IMG/VR virus record: IMGVR_UViG_3300035684_000001
Location: 124,001-188,000 of that record
Direction: 5' to 3' (one strand)
From: a virus
DNA: 64,000 nt
Each line of letters begins with the position of its first letter. Within the stretch, counting starts at the first letter, position 1. The notes under the pieces were generated by a model. It ran no database searches and had not been told where the DNA came from. It saw only the letters and a program-made list of their open reading frames with translations. A program made the position numbers and the translations under genes. Shown piece by piece: positions 12,457 to 57,721 of the stretch.

Positions 12457-14367
12457 ATGCCACATTCCCGTCGCCTTTTTGAAATGCTTCCGCTGTACGC
12501 ACAGTTGGCGGACGAGATCGGTTTATTGCAGCATTTGTGCGACGTAGGAGTCCAACCACAACTGGACATCCTCTACAAGATAGTCCAACTCCAAGAGTAT
12601 CTCTACGATCCAGATCACCCCGCATCTTTCCCGCATTTGGACTGGCTGGGTCAATTTGTAGGTCTGGGGAAAATTGAAGATCACTATTTGGGAATTGGCA
12701 TCAATCCCGAGTGGTCAACCATCCATAAGCGAAACCTAATCAAGTCCGCGTGGAAGTATTGGCGGATCAAGGGAACCGAGAAAGGAATTCGGATGGCGAT
12801 CGCCCTGTGGCTGCTTTGGGACAAATCCGACGATCGCCAGCTACTAGAAATCAGGCAGCCTCTGGGTCGGTTCCCGCTAGAAGAACCTCCCAACTGGATA
12901 ACCTGCGGAACCCGCTACAATCACTTTCGCACTCAAACTTTCAACGACTTGCAGCGCATGGGCTGGGGCGACGCTCCCGGAAGGACTTATCGACCTCGTT
13001 ACAAAATATTTACAGATCCCGGTGGAAGTTGGGTTTATGGCAACAGGTACAGCGATCGCCGACTGTTGTACCGCAAGCCCAACGAAATTTCTAAAGAATG
13101 TTCGATGATGGGGATATACCGCCCCTGGATGCACTTCAACGAATTAGACGAAACCAACTGGCACAAAATATTTCCCGACATATTCGATCTCAATCACGAG
13201 ATTTGGATGGCAACATCAACCCCGACCGTAATTGGCTGGTTTCATTTTCCCGTCAAAGCATTGGAACCAAAAGTTTTACCTCCAAAACCGATCGCCCACA
13301 AGTACAAATTTGAGTGCGACGGCATCCACTACGGCGATCGCTACCAACCTCGAATTGTCAAAAAACAAGAAATTGTTAGAATCCAGAAACGCTGGACTTT
13401 TTGGGAGAAAGCTTGTTGGTACGGCGACGCTTTTGGATGGACGAAGCCAACAACTGTTATTCCTCCTCCTCGCCCGCCGATGGCATTAGCTTTTTACGGG
13501 GATATCTACGGAACTGTCGCCAAGGTTTCCAATGAGTCAAGACGATCGCGCATACACCCCGCCAAGTTTTATTACGGCGATGGAGTTTTAACTGAGTCTG
13601 CAAAAATAGAAACTTTAATTTGCAGCCCGGGAATCTGGCTTCAGGTTTCAAAAAAAACTGCGGGCGAGCGTCGTTTTAACGAACAAATCTTAACGATAGA
13701 GGTTACGACTGTCGAAACGGAAATACCAGCGGGCAATCGGCTCACGAATATTTCAGCGCTGCAGGGCGATCGTTTTTTTGACTTGCGACAAAATTTTCTA
13801 CAGCCCTATGCTGCAACCAAAATTGAGGAAATTAAAAAAATTGGCTCAATAATTGCCTCTGGTTTTTGGAATTCTGGTGCACCTTGGAATTACTTCGTTA
13901 GAAAACCCGGGCAAGGGCAATCGAGCGCTGAAACTACTGAGTTAATTCAGTTGTGCCACTTCACTCGCCGATACAGCCGGCGCATCTTAACGATTGTTGA
14001 GAAAAAAACAATTCCACAGCGGGCGATCGCCTTGCACGAGTTATTCCCAATGTTGAAGCAGGCGTCAGACTCAAAGAATTGGGAGTGTCAACTATCGACG
14101 ACGCTTGGCTGGCTGGTCTATCCCCCTATCTCTATAGTTGCGCTGAGCAATGCGAACTGGAAAACAGCAAGGCGATCAACTGCTGTTTCTAGAGATTTTC
14201 CGTACTTGCTGGTTGAATTTTTGGGACGATCGGAATCTGACACATTGGTCGATTCTATCAAAATATACTTAGCTGGCAAGTTAGTTGAGGCGCGCTACTT
14301 TGACAAATCACTGTTTATGGGGGAAATCGGTGGGTTTGGCGTAAGAATAATTTTACAATTAACTTGA
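12457..14367 (+). CDS. Baseplate/tail protein, phage gpI-like
   Basis: 636 codons from ATG at 12457. The N-terminal ~120 residues have the tail-protein-I plan: LYDPDHPASFPHLDWLGQFV, then NPEWSTIHKRNLIKSAWKYW and RIKGTEKGIRMAIALW (compare WLA..LG.....W....R..L......Y..RGT..GL...L). GpI-family proteins are baseplate wedge components. The rest has many YGD/YGDRY turns and is probably an extended beta-rich arm. There is no Shine-Dalgarno; a tRNA gene abuts the start. Confidence 0.75.
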   Translation: MPHSRRLFEMLPLYAQLADEIGLLQHLCDVGVQPQLDILYKIVQLQEYLYDPDHPASFPHLDWLGQFVGLGKIEDHYLGIGINPEWSTIHKRNLIKSAWKYWRIKGTEKGIRMAIALWLLWDKSDDRQLLEIRQPLGRFPLEEPPNWITCGTRYNHFRTQTFNDLQRMGWGDAPGRTYRPRYKIFTDPGGSWVYGNRYSDRRLLYRKPNEISKECSMMGIYRPWMHFNELDETNWHKIFPDIFDLNHEIWMATSTPTVIGWFHFPVKALEPKVLPPKPIAHKYKFECDGIHYGDRYQPRIVKKQEIVRIQKRWTFWEKACWYGDAFGWTKPTTVIPPPRPPMALAFYGDIYGTVAKVSNESRRSRIHPAKFYYGDGVLTESAKIETLICSPGIWLQVSKKTAGERRFNEQILTIEVTTVETEIPAGNRLTNISALQGDRFFDLRQNFLQPYAATKIEEIKKIGSIIASGFWNSGAPWNYFVRKPGQGQSSAETTELIQLCHFTRRYSRRILTIVEKKTIPQRAIALHELFPMLKQASDSKNWECQLSTTLGWLVYPPISIVALSNANWKTARRSTAVSRDFPYLLVEFLGRSESDTLVDSIKIYLAGKLVEARYFDKSLFMGEIGGFGVRIILQLT

Positions 14368-34262: not shown

Positions 34263-34985
34263 TTAGATAGTGATACCACATTTTGGAAGTTTCTTGCACA
34301 ACCAGTTGATATCACGATCGCTAATTTGATTGCCTCCGAGGTAGAGTCTTGTCAGATTAGTCAGCGATGCTAGTGGTTTGATATCGCTAATCTGATTGTT
34401 TTCGAGGGATAGCCCGACCAGATTAGTCAAAGTTGTTAGTGGCGTAAGATCGGTAACTTGACTGTCGCTGAGAGCAAGCCATTCCAAATTAGTCAAAGCT
34501 TGTAACGGTTCGAGGTTGGTAAATTGATAACCGTAGAGGTGATCGTAGATTACGAGATTAGTCAACTTAGTCAAAGCTCGTAACGCTTCAAGACTGCCGA
34601 TCTGGTTTGTTAAGTGTCTTGGCGGTTCAACGTCGCTAATCCGATTATTTCCTATGAAAAGCTCAGTTAGATTAATCAAAGAAGCTAGCGAATCAAAATT
34701 GCTGATTTGATTGCTTACCAGCATGAGCCAAGTTAGATTAGTCAAAGTTGTTAGTGGTGTAATATCGCTAACCGGATTGTCTCTGAGACAGAGCCGACTC
34801 AGGTTACTTAAAGAGGATAACGGCTTAATGTCGCTAATTTGATTGTTTTCAAGGTAAAGTGCCGTTAGGTTGACTAAAGATTCTAGCGGTTTAATCTCGC
34901 TGATTTGATAGTCAGCGAGATCAAGCTCTGTTAAATTGTTTAGGTCAAATTGAGCTAGAATTTTTTCAGTGTGTTGGATTGTCAT
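34263..34985 (-). CDS. Leucine-rich-repeat protein 1 (240 aa)
   Basis: Nearly the whole protein is built of ~22-residue SDS22/internalin-type repeats, e.g. LVNLTALYLENNQISDIKPL and LTNLTWLMLVSNQISNFDSL, about nine copies with one irregular 30-residue insert around residue 120. It ends NWLCKKLPKCGITI, shared in form with three other LRR genes here. No signal peptide or anchor, so it is cytoplasmic. Binding target unknown; curved LRR proteins usually mediate protein-protein contacts. Confidence 0.85.
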   Translation of the reverse strand: MTIQHTEKILAQFDLNNLTELDLADYQISEIKPLESLVNLTALYLENNQISDIKPLSSLSNLSRLCLRDNPVSDITPLTTLTNLTWLMLVSNQISNFDSLASLINLTELFIGNNRISDVEPPRHLTNQIGSLEALRALTKLTNLVIYDHLYGYQFTNLEPLQALTNLEWLALSDSQVTDLTPLTTLTNLVGLSLENNQISDIKPLASLTNLTRLYLGGNQISDRDINWLCKKLPKCGITI

Positions 34986-37118: not shown

Positions 37119-37706
37119 ATGAAAATTGCAAAACAAAGTATTGCACAATATTTAACTGTTGTCAGTGCAACTCAACTCAGCAACTACAGCTTATTGACTT
37201 CTTTTATAGACCTCAGTCATGTTGCACTCAAAGACCATCAGATTAACGATATTAGTTTTATATCTTTTTGTAGAAAACTAAGCTGGCTCGGACTCGGAGA
37301 CAATCAAATTGAAGATATTAGTTCGCTGTCTTCGTTAATTTCTTTGACCGACTTATTTCTTGGACAAAATCAAATTAAAGACATTAGTCCGCTAGCTGGC
37401 TTGATTAATTTGACCGGTCTTGGTCTTGGCGACAATCCGATCAAAGAAATTGATCCGTTAAGTTCTTTGATCAATTTGACTCATCTCGAATTTGGAAATA
37501 ATCAAATTGAAAGTATCAGTTCGTTAGTTTCTTTGGTTAATTTAAAATGTCTCGCTCTTGGAAACAATTGCATCACAGATATTAGCCCGTTAGCATCTCT
37601 GGGTAATTTGACTTTACTCCACCTTGGAAGTAATCGCGTTAGCGACAAAAATATGAGTTGGCTACGCAACAAATTACCAAATTGCCGTATCACAATGGAC
37701 GAGTAA
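37119..37706 (+). CDS. Leucine-rich-repeat protein 2 (195 aa)
   Basis: ATG at 37119 after TGTTATACT and an A-rich leader. About six repeats of the type LINLTGLGLGDNPIKEIDPL. Ends SWLRNKLPNCRIT, parallel to LRR protein 1. Hydrophilic, no signal peptide. Paralogue in the moron island; target unknown. Confidence 0.85.
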   Translation: MKIAKQSIAQYLTVVSATQLSNYSLLTSFIDLSHVALKDHQINDISFISFCRKLSWLGLGDNQIEDISSLSSLISLTDLFLGQNQIKDISPLAGLINLTGLGLGDNPIKEIDPLSSLINLTHLEFGNNQIESISSLVSLVNLKCLALGNNCITDISPLASLGNLTLLHLGSNRVSDKNMSWLRNKLPNCRITMDE

Positions 37707-38444: not shown

Positions 38445-38921
38445 ATGACAATGCGATTTACCCAAAGCAAATTTTATGTCTTTGACGATCTAAACAATCT
38501 TACTGGATTGACCGTCGCGGACAGTCAAATCAATGACGTTAAATTTTTGACTCCTCTAACAAACCTGAGAATGCTCAGACTTAACAACAATGACATTAGC
38601 AACATTAAACCGTTAGAATCTTTAGTAAATCTAGAAAGACTTGATCTTAACAACAATCAAATTAGCGACATTAAATCATTAGCTAATTTAACCAATTTGC
38701 ATTGGCTTTATCTTGAGAACAATCCAGTAAAAGATATTGAGCCATTAGCTAATTTAACTAAGCTAACAAGGCTCAATCTGAGCAAGACGCTAACAACAAC
38801 TTCTCGTGTAATGTGGTTAAAAAAACGACTCCCACATTGCGAAATTCGTTACGCATTCGTAAAAAACAACATACATTACGTAAAAAGGAATAATGAATGG
38901 TATATTCATACAGAAGAATAA
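38445..38921 (+). CDS. Leucine-rich-repeat protein 3 (158 aa)
   Basis: ATG at 38445 after TGTTATAAT and leader ttcacaaaacaATG. Four to five repeats (LVNLERLDLNNNQISDIKSL), then the conserved cap MWLKKRLPHCEIR and a 20-residue tail unlike the others. Cytoplasmic. Same family as LRR 1, 2 and 4. Confidence 0.85.
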   Translation: MTMRFTQSKFYVFDDLNNLTGLTVADSQINDVKFLTPLTNLRMLRLNNNDISNIKPLESLVNLERLDLNNNQISDIKSLANLTNLHWLYLENNPVKDIEPLANLTKLTRLNLSKTLTTTSRVMWLKKRLPHCEIRYAFVKNNIHYVKRNNEWYIHTEE

Positions 38922-40642: not shown

Positions 40643-40756
40643 CTAGAAATTTAACTGAGCAAACAACTTGTCGAGAGCTTTTAGGATGCGAACTTGGGTA
40701 ACAGGTTTCATGGTTTTTGGTTTGGCTAGAGTAAGTAATTTTTGATTAACAAGCAT
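40643..40756 (-). CDS. 37-residue basic peptide coupled to the methyltransferase
   Basis: ATG at 40756 overlaps the end of the methyltransferase gene out of frame; stop TAG at 40645-40643. Product MLVNQKLLTLAKPKTMKPVT plus VRILKALDKLFAQLNF, basic and amphipathic. Coupling by overlap suggests a real small gene, but evidence is limited. Confidence 0.35.
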   Translation of the reverse strand: MLVNQKLLTLAKPKTMKPVTQVRILKALDKLFAQLNF

Positions 40757-41999
40757 GGCATTGAACTCCGTTACTGCTGGAATTAATTTGTCGTTCAAGT
40801 GCCGTATAAATAGTTTCAGCAACTTCTACAGCAACGCCATTACCAATTCCTTCGCTAGCAAGTGCATTGTTGGTAGGTAACTTGTAGTCGTCACGCAAGC
40901 CCTGCAACCTTGCCAACATCCTTGTAGAAAATTTCACAAAAATGCAGTTTTCAAGAATAAATTGAAGTTGAGATTCAGGAGATTGCAACGGATTCAATTT
41001 TATCCGATCGCCCGACAAGACTCCTGTAGGGTACGCACCGGGAGTTACGGTCACTGTTGGCTTGTCCCCCAAGCGAATAGTTGGAGAATTGTTACCAGCA
41101 TTTGCACCCGGAACGAGTATCGCTGTCGGCCAGTGACTTTCGGAGTTACAACTGCCGATGATCGTGTATGCGGGTTTTTGTTCGTCACAGAAGGTAATTT
41201 CGCGACCAGCATTTTTGCCGTCTACAATCAAGGAGTTAAATTCTTTAAGCTTACCAAGGGCGATCGCCTCCTTCAGTCGATTCATCTGCCATTTAGCTAA
41301 ACCGTTTGTCCTGCGATCGCCCTTGGTTTGATGAAAAAGCCAATCAGATTTTTCAGAATCCCAGGTATAGTAGGGGCGATCGGGTAACAAATCTGTTACC
41401 GCTTCAAGCCAGCCTTTCCAAGGTTTAATAGGATCACCGAATAGTTGTGGTATCGGGTTCTTGGCGTGTGTTGGGGCGATCGCTGGTACTGAACCAATAT
41501 CTTTGCGAGTCGCAATCAAAAACATTCGCTTCCGTGTTTGGGGTGTGCCGTAGTCAGCGGCATTCAGCACAAAGGTTTGTGTGTTATAGAACAATTGCCA
41601 CAATTCCCTTTTTAAATGATTGTAACTCCTAGAGCCGATGTAGCCCTCTACATTTTCGACAACCACACACTTGGGCATTAGTATTTTTATATGATCCGCG
41701 ACTGCAAAAGCAGAACTTGTTTGTTCTAGTCCTTCTGCACCGCCTTTTTTTCCTCTTGAAAACTCGTCACACTCGGGTGATACCCAATAGATGTCTAGAT
41801 TACCTTTGCCAATTTTAAAATTTTCTGCACAGACATCTTGGACTTTTGAAATCAAAAGATGTTCAGCGCCGTGATTCGGGATATACATTTCTTTTGCTAT
41901 TTTTTCCCAAAATTCAACTGCAAAGATCAATTTCCCACCGCGTTGTTTAAAGGCTTCATCGACTGTCCCAGCTCCGCTGAATTCAGTTCCACACAACAT
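40746..41999 (-). CDS. DNA (cytosine-5) methyltransferase 1 (417 aa)
   Basis: agagga precedes ATG 41999. Motif I variant CGTEFSGAGTVDEAF, catalytic motif IV SPECDEFSRG (C77), motif VI ENVEGY (115-120), motif VIII QTRKRMFLIA, and motif X-like GNGVAVEVAETI near the end. Together these define a C5 methyltransferase; the SPEC variant of PC is seen in phage and other orphan enzymes. Target sequence unknown; no restriction partner nearby, so self-protection of phage DNA is likely. The second enzyme is at 42962-44092. Confidence 0.85.
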   Translation of the reverse strand: MLCGTEFSGAGTVDEAFKQRGGKLIFAVEFWEKIAKEMYIPNHGAEHLLISKVQDVCAENFKIGKGNLDIYWVSPECDEFSRGKKGGAEGLEQTSSAFAVADHIKILMPKCVVVENVEGYIGSRSYNHLKRELWQLFYNTQTFVLNAADYGTPQTRKRMFLIATRKDIGSVPAIAPTHAKNPIPQLFGDPIKPWKGWLEAVTDLLPDRPYYTWDSEKSDWLFHQTKGDRRTNGLAKWQMNRLKEAIALGKLKEFNSLIVDGKNAGREITFCDEQKPAYTIIGSCNSESHWPTAILVPGANAGNNSPTIRLGDKPTVTVTPGAYPTGVLSGDRIKLNPLQSPESQLQFILENCIFVKFSTRMLARLQGLRDDYKLPTNNALASEGIGNGVAVEVAETIYTALERQINSSSNGVQCHAC

Positions 42000-42074: not shown

Positions 42075-42962
42075 CTACAGCACGAAACCCGCTGCGTGTT
42101 CGTAACCGCCACCGCCCAGCGAAGTCGCAATTATCTCGACATCAGCACCGCCGTAACGGCGCGATCGTAGGGAAACTTGTTTCGGATCATCAGTTGTTAG
42201 GGCCACGAACGGATGTTGCGGAAGCCGAATAGCCGCCCGCGCCCCCACCATTGAGTAATGTCGGTGCAGGTCGGGGCGATCGCGCAAATCGAAATAAGGA
42301 ACCGACACGCCAGCGACATCCATAAATTCAAGAGATTTATCGTCTAAATATTGATCGATCAACCTATTGCGTTCAGCAATTTTTGGCAATCCTTCCTGTA
42401 TGAGTATAGATTTAGGAATCCCGCACAGTTCGTCAAAAAACTTAAACGCAGCTACACCGGAACCGTACTCGCGACGACGAGCACTCATCGCCTCTCCGAT
42501 CGCCTCTGACTCAGGAATTTCGCCCTGATAGTAACCGTCAGCACCGATGTCGCGCTGGCGGACATAGGGGAGAAACCAGGGCATTGCCAATCTTCCTGCA
42601 ATCCCAGTACCGTGAAAATATTTCCAGGCAAGTGTCGCACCGCATTCGGCAATGTCGAATACTCCAAATTTTGCAACAAACTCTTTGCCTTTGTGGTGAT
42701 CCAAGACCACCAGTTTATTAGCTTGCCTCTTTATTTGATTAAGAATCGATTCAGGATAACTGATATCTACTAAATAAAGGTCATTACCCATTGACTTGAA
42801 AGGCAAAGATTCAAACCTATAGTCGTCTGATTTGAGGTGGACTTGCGGAATTAATTCCCACCCATGCCCCCCGATTGCCCGTGCAGCAATCCATGAAGCG
42901 CAGATAGCGTCAGGACAATCAATTCCGTCTTTGATTTGGTGGTAAACAATGTTAATCCACAT
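42075..42962 (-). CDS. DHH-family phosphoesterase (295 aa)
   Basis: ATG at 42962 overlaps the upstream stop (TAATG). DH-motifs: DCPDAICASWIA, LVDISYP, VVLDHHKGKEF (DHH), and a C-terminal GGGYEHAAGFVL of the DHHA type. The family includes RecJ-like nucleases, nanoRNases and cyclic-dinucleotide phosphodiesterases. In a phage, degradation of cyclic-nucleotide immune signals or nanoRNA is possible; the substrate cannot be read from sequence. Lies between two methyltransferase genes in one operon. Confidence 0.75.
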   Translation of the reverse strand: MWINIVYHQIKDGIDCPDAICASWIAARAIGGHGWELIPQVHLKSDDYRFESLPFKSMGNDLYLVDISYPESILNQIKRQANKLVVLDHHKGKEFVAKFGVFDIAECGATLAWKYFHGTGIAGRLAMPWFLPYVRQRDIGADGYYQGEIPESEAIGEAMSARRREYGSGVAAFKFFDELCGIPKSILIQEGLPKIAERNRLIDQYLDDKSLEFMDVAGVSVPYFDLRDRPDLHRHYSMVGARAAIRLPQHPFVALTTDDPKQVSLRSRRYGGADVEIIATSLGGGGYEHAAGFVL

Positions 42963-44092
42963 TAGAATTCTCCGTTTTTTAAGTGTTTTGCGTAGGCGAC
43001 CATCGGCTCGATCGCTACTCCATTTCCGATCATTTTGGAATCCTCGACGTTCTTGCCCGAAAGCTTGAAGTCGTCGGGCAGTCCCTGAAGTCGAGCCAAG
43101 CACCGAGGCGACAGTTGCACGACTTTAAGAGATTTCAAATATTCATCGATCGCCCCAGTCTTAGCAGTTCCGCCAAACACGCAGTCCATGCGGTGCCAGT
43201 GTCCGTCCTTACCAAAAGCTCGGATCGTGTTGCTGGGATACTCAGGGGCGATCGCGCTCAATGGCCCGTTCCTTGCTCCGGTTTTTCCAACGAGCACTTT
43301 TGGTATACCTTTTTGGCGGAACTTGTGCTTGGAGGCGATCGCCCCTGACGCTAGGCGTTGAATTTGCCAAAGTGCTAAACCATTTTTTGTGGTGCGCTCC
43401 CCGTTACAAATCCACTGGTACTGACCGTTTGGCTTTTTCTGAGGTATCCCGTCAGCGATCACCACCGTGTAAACGGGCAACTCGGTCAATAAGTCGGCGA
43501 TCGCCCCATACCAGCCTCGCCAAGCAGGTAGCCCGTAAATAGAGGTATCGAACAAAGTGCCTTCATCTTTCCGTTTAGCGTGAGACGGTGGCACGATAGG
43601 TAGCTTACCGCGACTGTAAATAGCAAAACCCCTCTCCCTATCTTGGGGAGTTCCAAAGTTAGCTGCATTGACGCGATCAACCCTGACTTTATACCCCATC
43701 CGCTTTAAAGCAGACTCTACGATCGCCCAACTCTTTGATTTTTCGCCAAAATAGGGAAGAACTTGCTCTATAATCCCGAACTTAGGATTGAGCAACTCTA
43801 TTTTCCGCACCAAAGCTTGTGCCAGCAAAATGTCTAACTCAGTTTCTAAGCCAGTACCGACCTCGCTGAACCTTTGGCACGGCGGAGAGTCTTGGCAGAT
43901 ATCGATTGACCCGATCGCCGACCAATCCACGTCAGCGATCGATTTAACCTCTAAGTGTGTTTGAGAAAAATTCATCGTATAAATCTCTGCCGCGCTGGGA
44001 TTATTCTCGACTGCGTGTACGACTTTAACCCCCGCTAGTTCTAGGGCGATCGAACTCAGTCCACCCCCCGCAAATCCGATTGAAGCTCTCAT
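42962..44092 (-). CDS. DNA (cytosine-5) methyltransferase 2 (376 aa)
   Basis: ATG at 44092 overlaps the previous gene. Motif I IGFAGGGLSSIAL, catalytic SPPCQRFSE (C72), motif VI degenerate (IIEQVLPYF instead of ENV), motif VIII TPQDRERGFAIY, and GNGVAIEPM at the end. The altered ENV motif is a deviation that may affect activity. Different from methyltransferase 1 in sequence, so probably a different target. Part of the early operon 40.6-44.8 kb. Confidence 0.8.
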   Translation of the reverse strand: MRASIGFAGGGLSSIALELAGVKVVHAVENNPSAAEIYTMNFSQTHLEVKSIADVDWSAIGSIDICQDSPPCQRFSEVGTGLETELDILLAQALVRKIELLNPKFGIIEQVLPYFGEKSKSWAIVESALKRMGYKVRVDRVNAANFGTPQDRERGFAIYSRGKLPIVPPSHAKRKDEGTLFDTSIYGLPAWRGWYGAIADLLTELPVYTVVIADGIPQKKPNGQYQWICNGERTTKNGLALWQIQRLASGAIASKHKFRQKGIPKVLVGKTGARNGPLSAIAPEYPSNTIRAFGKDGHWHRMDCVFGGTAKTGAIDEYLKSLKVVQLSPRCLARLQGLPDDFKLSGKNVEDSKMIGNGVAIEPMVAYAKHLKNGEF

Positions 44093-52717: not shown

Positions 52718-52778
52718 TTGCGTATCACCACAACTTGTGATACCATCAAAACAAAATGGATTTCTACCCATATATCTA

Positions 52779-53264
52779 ATGACATACATTTACCCTGCCG
52801 CATATACCGCCGAACAGTTAGAAAAAATTTCTAACATAGTCCTCCTAACGGACGTGGCTGCTGAAGACAAAGGCATTGAAGATTTATCGCCTTTCACCGA
52901 GCTCACGCGAATAGATCGTCTGTGGTTGAAAGGTAATAAAATTAGCGATCTCAGCCCGCTGACATCGCTAACCAAAATGGTACATTTAGATCTGAGAAAA
53001 AATAAAATAGTCAATCTCGCTCCACTGGCAGCGTTGACGAGATTGACTTGGCTTTACCTTGACGACAATCAAATTGTCGATCTTACACCGTTAGGTTCGT
53101 TAACCAACCTAACACGGCTAGATCTTATAAATAATAAAATTACGAGCCTCAAGCCATTAAGCTCGCTGCCCAACTTAGCCGAGCTTTTCATCACAGGAAA
53201 TGACATTAGCCCGGAGGAAAAAAGCTCGTTTCAGAAAGCGCTGCCAAATTGCATCATGCAGTAA
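52779..53264 (+). CDS. Leucine-rich-repeat protein 4 (161 aa)
   Basis: ATG at 52779 (MTYIYPAAYTAEQLEKISNI). Five repeats of the LTKMVHLDLRKNKIVNLAPL type, terminal cap EKSSFQKALPNCI. Same overall plan as the three LRR proteins at 34-39 kb, 14 kb away. Cytoplasmic; partner unknown. Confidence 0.85.
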   Translation: MTYIYPAAYTAEQLEKISNIVLLTDVAAEDKGIEDLSPFTELTRIDRLWLKGNKISDLSPLTSLTKMVHLDLRKNKIVNLAPLAALTRLTWLYLDDNQIVDLTPLGSLTNLTRLDLINNKITSLKPLSSLPNLAELFITGNDISPEEKSSFQKALPNCIMQ

Positions 53265-56354: not shown

Positions 56355-57017
56355 ATGAAAATCGTAAAATTGCTCAACGACAGCGGCGTGTTAATCAGCA
56401 AAAAACTAGCTGACACAATAGCAGCTTTTAAGTTCCATAACTGCGGAAGTATTGACGAGTTAGCAAGCGATTTTGTTAAAAAGTTGGTAAAATTCACCAA
56501 AGAAGCGTTGCAAGACTCCGAGAATTTCTACCAGGACGACGATTACCCCCGTAAAATTTACAACCTTATTTCCGAAGATGCTGCTTCCCGTGAACTGCAA
56601 GACGCGATCGACAAAATAGAAGATGATTTGCATGAATGGAAAGTCGGAGACGAGCTTGACAATTTGATTGTCGAAATTATTGCCTGCACGGTTGAATCTA
56701 CGACACACAGCAGTGATTTAAAACAACCACATCTATGTCAGTCATTACCTAATACTGAGGAAAACAGCGTCCTCTTAACAGTAGAGGGTTCTCAAGAGTA
56801 TATTGAACAACTTGTATCTTCCATCAAATCAGAAGATTTAAAAAAATTAAGCGATTTTCCCATCCTAGATGTTCAAATCTTGAGTAAAAATTCAGAGAAA
56901 AGTGAAGATGAAATAAAAAAGCCCCCAACACTAGAACAGCTAATGGAGGGAGTTACGGCAGAAAATATGCACTCAGAAACAGATTGGGGTTCTCCCGTTG
57001 GCAAAGAGATATGGTAA
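56355..57017 (+). CDS. Protein ending in a MazE-type toxin-binding tail (220 aa)
   Basis: ATG at 56355, leader aatcaaaaccaaATG. Residues 1-185 are helical and unlike MazE (no N-terminal AbrB swapped hairpin). The last ~30 residues, LEQLMEGVTAENMHSETDWG then SPVGKEIW, match the C-terminal MazF-neutralising tail of MazE antitoxins (typical form LEELLAGVTPENIH.E.DWG.PVGKEVW). No MazF-like toxin follows. The natural reading is a phage protein that carries a MazE decoy peptide to block host MazF; this is inference from sequence. Confidence 0.75.
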   Translation: MKIVKLLNDSGVLISKKLADTIAAFKFHNCGSIDELASDFVKKLVKFTKEALQDSENFYQDDDYPRKIYNLISEDAASRELQDAIDKIEDDLHEWKVGDELDNLIVEIIACTVESTTHSSDLKQPHLCQSLPNTEENSVLLTVEGSQEYIEQLVSSIKSEDLKKLSDFPILDVQILSKNSEKSEDEIKKPPTLEQLMEGVTAENMHSETDWGSPVGKEIW

Positions 57018-57035
57018 TCAACAAATAATTCACAA

Positions 57036-57503
57036 CTTGACACTCCCCAGCCTAAAGGCGTGGGGATTTTTAATTCAGCGACTGACCTTAAAATTGACTA
57101 TCCTTACGGCATTACTTAAACCAAATACCCGTTCAATTGAACCAAGTATCGAGCCTAACTTAGACAATCCCAGCGGGTCTATCTCCAAAAGCGTACTAGA
57201 ATATTTATCTAGAGTTTGGGTATGCCCTACCCTACTGTACAGACGTTCTGCCAGAACGTCTCTAAATAGTTTGTTTTTGCTGGTTTAAGGCTTACTGAAT
57301 TCAGCCTCTAGCTGTTTAAAGAGTTTTCGCTGCTCTGCGTCCAACAATTTATGCCTAAAAGTGTGTCTCATGTCCTGTTTCACGATGGCACAGGAGTTTA
57401 ACCTTGACTACTCTAGTATACTAGAAATTTCCTGACTTTTAGGAAGGGATTTAAGAAATTAAAGCCGTCCTAGAAGGACAGGGTTTTAAACCCAGATTTT
57501 TGA
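57036..57503. mobile_element. IS200/IS605-type remnant without transposase
   Basis: The left end (cttgacactccccagcct, hairpin CCCCAGCC-taaa-GGCGTGGGG) and right end (gccgtcctagaaggacaggg, then gttttaaaccc) are of the IS200/IS605 type common in cyanobacteria. About 470 bases lie between, with no intact TnpA or TnpB frame. A non-autonomous or decayed copy. No target duplication is expected for this family. Confidence 0.65.
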
Positions 57504-57628: not shown

Positions 57629-57721
57629 ATGAAACAAAACCACACATTAAACGATGAAAAAGAATTAGCTCCGGGCAATCAGATTATTGACGATACAGGA
57701 CGGACGATCGCCCATCCATAA
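57629..57721 (+). CDS. Possible 30-residue peptide
   Basis: ATG 57629 gives MKQNHTLNDEKELAPGNQII and so on, stop at the A run of the following terminator. No Shine-Dalgarno. Kept because a terminator starts right at its stop; otherwise weak. Confidence 0.25.
   Translation: MKQNHTLNDEKELAPGNQIIDDTGRTIAHP

What the first reader, a model, noticed from the sequence alone, without database searches (positions are those of the whole stretch)
56355..57017. Orphan MazE toxin-neutralising tail on a non-MazE phage protein
The last 30 residues match the C-terminal toxin-binding peptide of MazE antitoxins, while the other 190 residues lack the AbrB-type domain and no toxin gene follows. A phage protein carrying such a tail could neutralise the host MazF during infection. 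Seen: the tail and the missing partner. Known: MazE tails bind MazF. Inferred: anti-toxin function.
Basis: partly seen in the sequence, partly recalled or inferred. Interest (0 to 1): 0.78.

Follow-up and report, generated by a model that had tools for sequence, protein, structure and literature searches.

The report
Cyanophage protein with MazE antitoxin tail
A virus of cyanobacteria carries a patchwork protein that ends in the exact stretch bacteria use to switch off their own RNA-cutting MazF toxin, with no toxin gene alongside, so it probably disarms that toxin during infection, though this has not been tested in the laboratory.

Summary
The 220-aa ORF at 56355-57017 is real and coding-like, and residues 192-220 are an ungapped match to MazE 54-82 (60 bits against a MazE-tail profile; best of 20,000 shuffles 11 bits). 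There is no AbrB domain, and no MazF in this 188.5-kb phage record or in the one related phage found. So the protein is a three-part chimera: orphan helical N-terminus, half TRADD-N, MazE tail. The tail holds both MazF-binding segments, including the 14-residue helix shown experimentally (PMC12557383) to be enough to inhibit E. coli MazF as a free peptide. MazF is in 263 of 293 genomes sampled from one cyanobacterial order. Other phages have independent orphan MazE tails on non-AbrB proteins, and some cyanobacterial chromosomes encode non-AbrB MazE-tailed antitoxins next to mazF. Best reading: an orphan antitoxin mimic against host MazF, confidence 0.55. Against it: the related phage has lost the gene by an out-of-frame deletion, so it is dispensable, and no function has been tested. 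Orphan phage antitoxins are known; the scaffold is new.

The parts
56355..57017 (+). whole ORF, 220 aa, three-segment chimeric phage protein with MazE-type C-terminal tail
   Evidence: in-frame codon bias 0.21 bits/codon, other five frames negative
56355..56744 (+). segment 1 (res 1-130): orphan, probably helical N-terminal region; no relatives found
   Evidence: no Pfam/NCBIfam/PHROG hit above chance; no credible relative in 293 cyanobacterial genomes (best E 0.009); AF2 single-sequence model unusable, pLDDT 36
56754..56915 (+). segment 2 (res 134-187): C-terminal half of a TRADD-N domain (profile 27-68 of 69)
   Evidence: PF20694 E 3.4e-6; 49% identical to Trichormus TRADD-N; 78% DNA identity over 123 bp to the TRADD-N/pentapeptide gene of the related phage
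56928..57014 (+). segment 3 (res 192-220): MazE-type toxin-binding tail TLEQLMEGVTAENMHSETDWGSPVGKEIW
56928..56969 (+). tail helix (res 192-205), equivalent to MazE 54-67, site II; the sufficient inhibitory peptide in E. coli
   Evidence: ungapped alignment; function of MazE 54-67 from PMC12557383
56970..57014 (+). extended tail end (res 206-220), equivalent to MazE 68-82, site I; does not inhibit by itself
   Evidence: ungapped alignment; PMC12557383
57043..57068 (+). hairpin CTCCCCAGCCTAAAGGCGTGGGGATT 26 bases after the stop codon; resembles an IS200/IS605-type element end (identification from memory); a near-identical hairpin lies elsewhere in the related phage locus
57632..57691 (+). remnant of the 5' end of a TRADD-half/pentapeptide gene that is intact in the related phage (L044:4941-5483)
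   Evidence: blastn 84% identity to L044:4916-4979; sequences

Best explanation
An orphan antitoxin mimic encoded by a cyanophage. During infection the protein inserts its C-terminal 29 residues into the substrate groove of a host MazF/PemK endoribonuclease: the helix (res 192-205) blocks the RNA-binding site at the edge of the MazF dimer, and the extended DWGSPVGKEIW end adds affinity along the concave face. MazF set free when host antitoxin decays is thereby kept from cleaving viral and host mRNA. Shown here: the tail is homologous to MazE and complete; there is no MazF partner in the phage; MazF is near-universal in candidate hosts. Known from the literature: this peptide segment is sufficient to inhibit E. 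coli MazF. Inferred: expression in infection, binding to the actual host's MazF, and benefit to the phage. The half TRADD-N domain is inferred to be a second host-derived binding module or a simple spacer/oligomerisation part.
For: Tail homology far above chance. It covers MazE 54-82 exactly, including the 54-67 segment that inhibits MazF as an isolated peptide, while 68-82 alone does not (PMC12557383). Coding bias in all three segments. No MazF in the record nor in the related phage, whose tail remnant lies about 50 bp from the next gene, so the tail was probably already without a toxin in their common ancestor. MazF family in 263 of 293 genomes of the Fischerella order, and strong HIP1 enrichment (34 sites, 0.9 expected) points to a cyanobacterial host. 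The tail functions on other scaffolds in nature: 262-aa non-AbrB proteins with this tail directly precede MazF in three cyanobacterial genomes. Independent phages carry orphan MazE tails on non-AbrB proteins: Paenibacillus larvae phages, MazF absent from 5 of 6 records, and a Phd/YefM-MazE tail chimera. Published precedents for phage antitoxin mimics and orphan antitoxins, including a MazE in cyanophage S-CREM1 (PMC9964418) and AdfB (PMC11481870).
Against: No expression, binding or toxicity data. The only related phage found has lost the gene by an internal deletion that leaves the tail without an in-frame start, so it is dispensable at least in that lineage. No full-length relative was found in 2.9 million viral contigs or 84,980 species genomes by pattern scan, so long-term conservation cannot be shown. 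The host species is unknown, and cyanobacterial MazFs fall into several groups with different antitoxin tails, so the matching MazF may be absent from the real host.
Confidence: 0.55

Rival explanations
1. Decaying remnant: the locus once held (or the tail was picked up from) a MazEF-type module; the toxin is gone and the tailed protein is a neutral leftover in a hypervariable patch of the phage genome.
For: The locus is visibly scrambled: IS-type hairpin 26 bases after the stop, remnant of a pentapeptide gene, out-of-frame deletion of the same gene in the related phage. No full-length relatives.
Against: The ORF is intact over 220 codons with the phage's codon bias in every segment (chance of a random open 220-codon frame about 2e-6). 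No trace of mazF remains in six frames. The related phage's layout suggests the tail was already orphan in the common ancestor. The tail is complete.
Confidence: 0.22
2. The protein is part of an unrecognised toxin-antitoxin or addiction unit of the phage, with a non-MazF toxin partner nearby or in its own N-terminus.
For: MazE tails do occur as antitoxin tails on other scaffolds next to toxins, and the N-terminal segment has no relatives and unknown activity.
Against: Known MazE tails pair with MazF/PemK folds, of which there is none in the record. Neighbouring genes have no toxin-family hit, and the next gene downstream is not adjacent.
Confidence: 0.1
3. The protein is mainly a decoy of host TRADD-N immune-adaptor proteins; the MazE tail is a degron-like or accidental extension.
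For: The half TRADD-N domain is close to host TRADD-N/pentapeptide proteins, and TRADD-N proteins are predicted conflict-system adaptors (PMC8195603). The related phage carries the same half-domain on pentapeptide repeats.
Against: Only half of the domain is present, while the tail is complete and matches MazE over its full functional length, which an accidental extension would not.
Confidence: 0.13

Closest known systems
MazE antitoxin (E. coli MazEF, PDB 1ub4)
   Same: 29-residue C-terminal toxin-binding tail, ungapped match to MazE 54-82
   Different: no AbrB/SpoVT DNA-binding domain, no adjacent mazF, therefore no autoregulated operon
Orphan MazE of cyanophage S-CREM1 (PMC9964418)
   Same: cyanophage gene for a MazE-type antitoxin without its toxin, proposed to counter host MazF
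   Different: there annotated as MazE; here only the tail, on an unrelated scaffold (the S-CREM1 protein itself was not examined)
Phage antitoxin mimic AdfB against DarTG (PMC11481870) and T4-type TA inhibitor TifA (PMC10853763)
   Same: phage protein that neutralises a host toxin-antitoxin system
   Different: different toxin families; their function was tested, this one's was not
Halcyonevirus gp75 of Paenibacillus larvae phages (C7Cdelta, Tripp, Scottie and others)
   Same: small phage protein without AbrB domain ending in a complete MazE tail, no MazF in most records
   Different: unrelated N-terminus; overlaps a SocA/Panacea-domain gene placed where mazF usually starts
Cyanobacterial 262-aa MazE-tailed antitoxins (L056, L063, L064)
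   Same: MazE tail on a non-AbrB N-terminus
   Different: directly followed by mazF, so a normal TA pair; N-terminus unrelated to this protein by inspection
TRADD-N/pentapeptide conflict proteins of cyanobacteria (PMC8195603)
   Same: C-terminal half of the TRADD-N domain, 49% identical
   Different: host proteins have an additional N-terminal region, a full TRADD-N and pentapeptide repeats, and no MazE tail

Membership tests
MazE (AbrB-type) antitoxin | C-terminal MazF-binding peptide | tested here: met
MazE (AbrB-type) antitoxin | N-terminal AbrB/SpoVT swapped-hairpin DNA-binding domain | tested here: not met
   no AbrB hit in Pfam or NCBIfam; NCBIfam MazE equivalog 23 bits against cut-off 113
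MazE (AbrB-type) antitoxin | operon with mazF/pemK | tested here: not met
   no PF02452 match in the 188.5-kb record; none in six frames of the window
Phage anti-toxin (antitoxin mimic) | encoded by a phage without its cognate toxin | tested here: met
   portal, sheath, lysozyme and head protein genes in the window; no MazF
Phage anti-toxin (antitoxin mimic) | binds and neutralises a host toxin | not testable with these tools
   needs co-expression or binding assay; the sufficient peptide segment is present
Phage anti-toxin (antitoxin mimic) | target toxin present in hosts | tested here: inconclusive
   263 of 293 genomes of one cyanobacterial order carry the MazF family, but the actual host is not identified
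TRADD-N conflict protein | complete TRADD-N domain | tested here: not met
   only profile positions 27-68 of 69 matched here, 28-68 in the related phage
TRADD-N conflict protein | effector/HTH N-terminus and repeat or NTPase C-terminus | tested here: not met
   no effector domain hit; C-terminus is the MazE tail

The most novel reading that the evidence does not exclude
A bifunctional counter-defence protein: the phage fused a host-derived half TRADD-N adaptor (a dominant-negative decoy of predicted apoptosis-like conflict proteins of multicellular cyanobacteria) to a stand-alone MazF-inhibiting peptide, so that one protein blocks both the signalling and the toxin arm of host suicide responses. 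More generally, phages graft the bare 29-residue MazE tail onto unrelated proteins as a portable MazF inhibitor.
Probability: 0.15. Interest if true: 0.8.

Novelty: new variant of a known kind. Interest (0 to 1): 0.52.

Why it matters
Whether chromosomal MazF toxins really act in phage defence, especially in multicellular cyanobacteria, is debated. Phages that carry only the toxin-binding peptide of MazE, on scaffolds with no DNA-binding or operon role, would be indirect evidence that MazF is a barrier worth disarming, and would supply natural minimal MazF inhibitors. A recurrent 'bare tail' strategy would also be missed by antitoxin annotation that relies on the AbrB domain.

Tried and rejected
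Close relatives of the full protein by pattern scan in viral and genome contigs: none. N-terminal relatives in 293 cyanobacterial genomes: only chance-level hits, E about 0.009. AlphaFold2 on the single sequence: mean pLDDT 36, so no fold search was made. Hidden or fragmentary mazF downstream: none in six frames; the overlapping ATGGTAATCAAC at the stop codon recalls the usual mazF start overlap, but an ATGGTAA arises whenever an A-ending codon precedes TGG-TAA, so it was not taken as evidence. A provirus of this phage in cyanobacterial genomes, using the head protein: none in 386, so no host could be named. PADLOC: no hit. CDI toxin-like Pfam hit at residues 8-81 rejected (E 0.12, below cut-off). 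The L012/L016/L017/L019 family (DFGKPEGKEVW upstream of a DNA-ligase-like ORF) is at chance level against the MazE-tail profile (E 0.12) and is not claimed as a MazE tail.

Full report
What is there. The ORF 56355-57017 (+, 220 aa) exists as described. The window is part of a 188,553-base virus record with portal, tail sheath, head and lysozyme genes. GCGATCGC (HIP1) is enriched 34 to 0.9 expected, which together with the TRADD-N relatives points to a cyanobacterial host; the host is not identified.

The tail. Residues 192-220 align without gaps to E. coli MazE 54-82. Against a profile of 16 other MazE-type tails, most of them taken from genes directly followed by mazF, the protein scores 60.3 bits; 20,000 shuffles of the same protein reach at most 11.4. 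The homology is therefore not chance. In E. coli, MazE 54-67 as an isolated peptide inhibits MazF, while 68-82 binds another part of the toxin and does not inhibit by itself (PMC12557383). The phage tail contains both segments, residues 192-205 and 206-220.

The rest. Residues 134-174 are the C-terminal half of a TRADD-N domain (PF20694, above its curated cut-off), 49% identical to cyanobacterial TRADD-N/pentapeptide proteins. TRADD-N is a predicted adaptor of bacterial apoptosis-like conflict systems and normally sits between variable N- and C-terminal domains (PMC8195603). Residues 1-130 have no relatives. All three segments show the codon bias of the phage's own genes, in this frame only. 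The structure prediction was unusable.

The related phage. One other phage record (188,942 bases, 75-90% DNA identity in flanking genes) has the same start (ATGACAATCGTAAAA) joined directly to the tail. The join falls on the short shared sequence TAAAA and leaves the tail out of frame with the ATG; the tail remnant has also changed (DWS, PVKEIWWE). About 50 bp further on it has a separate gene: the same half TRADD-N followed by pentapeptide repeats. The window keeps only the first codons of that gene at 57632-57691. The simplest history is an ancestor with both genes side by side, the tailed gene lost in one phage and the pentapeptide gene in the other, with the TRADD half shared between the two genes by recombination or duplication. 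No mazF lies between the genes in the related phage, so the tail was probably orphan already; this is inference from two genomes. It also shows that the gene is dispensable.

Partner. No MazF/PemK anywhere in the record, none in six frames of the window with a subgroup-specific profile, none in the related phage. Candidate hosts are full of targets: 263 of 293 genomes of the Fischerella order have the family, often many copies. Cyanobacterial MazFs have several classes of antitoxin tail, so specificity matters.

How unusual is it? In cyanobacterial genomes, three loci encode a 262-aa protein without AbrB domain that ends in the same tail and is directly followed by mazF (L056, L063, L064): the tail works as a portable module. 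Scans of viral contigs and phage genomes found ordinary AbrB-MazE/MazF pairs, and also orphan tails on other scaffolds: the Paenibacillus larvae phages' gp75 (105 aa), overlapping a Panacea-domain gene where mazF would start, with MazF absent from 5 of 6 such records, and a Phd/YefM-MazE tail chimera with no mazF in its 22-kb record. Orphan antitoxins in phages are published, including a MazE in cyanophage S-CREM1, and an antitoxin mimic has been proven against DarTG. Hence 'new variant of a known kind'.

Verdict. Anti-MazF activity is the best-supported mechanism (0.55) but untested. The relic reading (0.22) is kept alive by the scrambled locus and by the deletion in the related phage. The TRADD half-domain is the most novel and least understood part.

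Noticed in passing
L003:2285-3060 (Paenibacillus phage C7Cdelta gp75-gp76); also L009, L014, L023, L028, L029, L030: Orphan MazE tail on a 105-aa protein without AbrB domain, whose stop overlaps the start of a SocA/Panacea antitoxin-domain gene, in the position and overlap typical of mazF. Looks like a two-antitoxin cassette in isolated phages.
   Followed up: partly
L056:868-1656, L063:871-1659, L064:871-1659: Cyanobacterial chromosomal MazEF-like pairs whose antitoxin has a 230-aa N-terminus with no significant Pfam match in place of the AbrB domain, keeping the MazE tail.
   Followed up: partly
L075, - strand, around 13170-13198: Viral contig protein with Phd/YefM N-terminus fused to a complete MazE tail, no mazF within the 22-kb record.
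   Followed up: partly
L044:4941-5483: Related phage carries a half TRADD-N domain on pentapeptide repeats, a truncated version of host conflict proteins (which have an extra N-terminal region and a full TRADD-N): possible decoy.
   Followed up: partly
window 34263-34985, 37119-37706, 38445-38921, 52737-53264: Four separate leucine-rich-repeat proteins of the same style scattered through the phage genome, on both strands (one confirmed by Pfam, the others by eye).
   Followed up: no
L012, L016, L017, L019: Viral family of about 119-133 aa ending in DFGKPEGKEVW, upstream of a DNA-ligase-like ORF; tail resemblance is at chance level against the MazE profile.
   Followed up: partly
window 57036-57500: Possible IS200/IS605-type remnant without transposase, with a sharp end hairpin; a near-identical hairpin sits about 800 bp past the tail remnant in the related phage's locus.
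   Followed up: no
window 40746-41999 and 42962-44092, - strand: Two genes that by eye resemble C5 cytosine methyltransferases close together in the phage.
   Followed up: no
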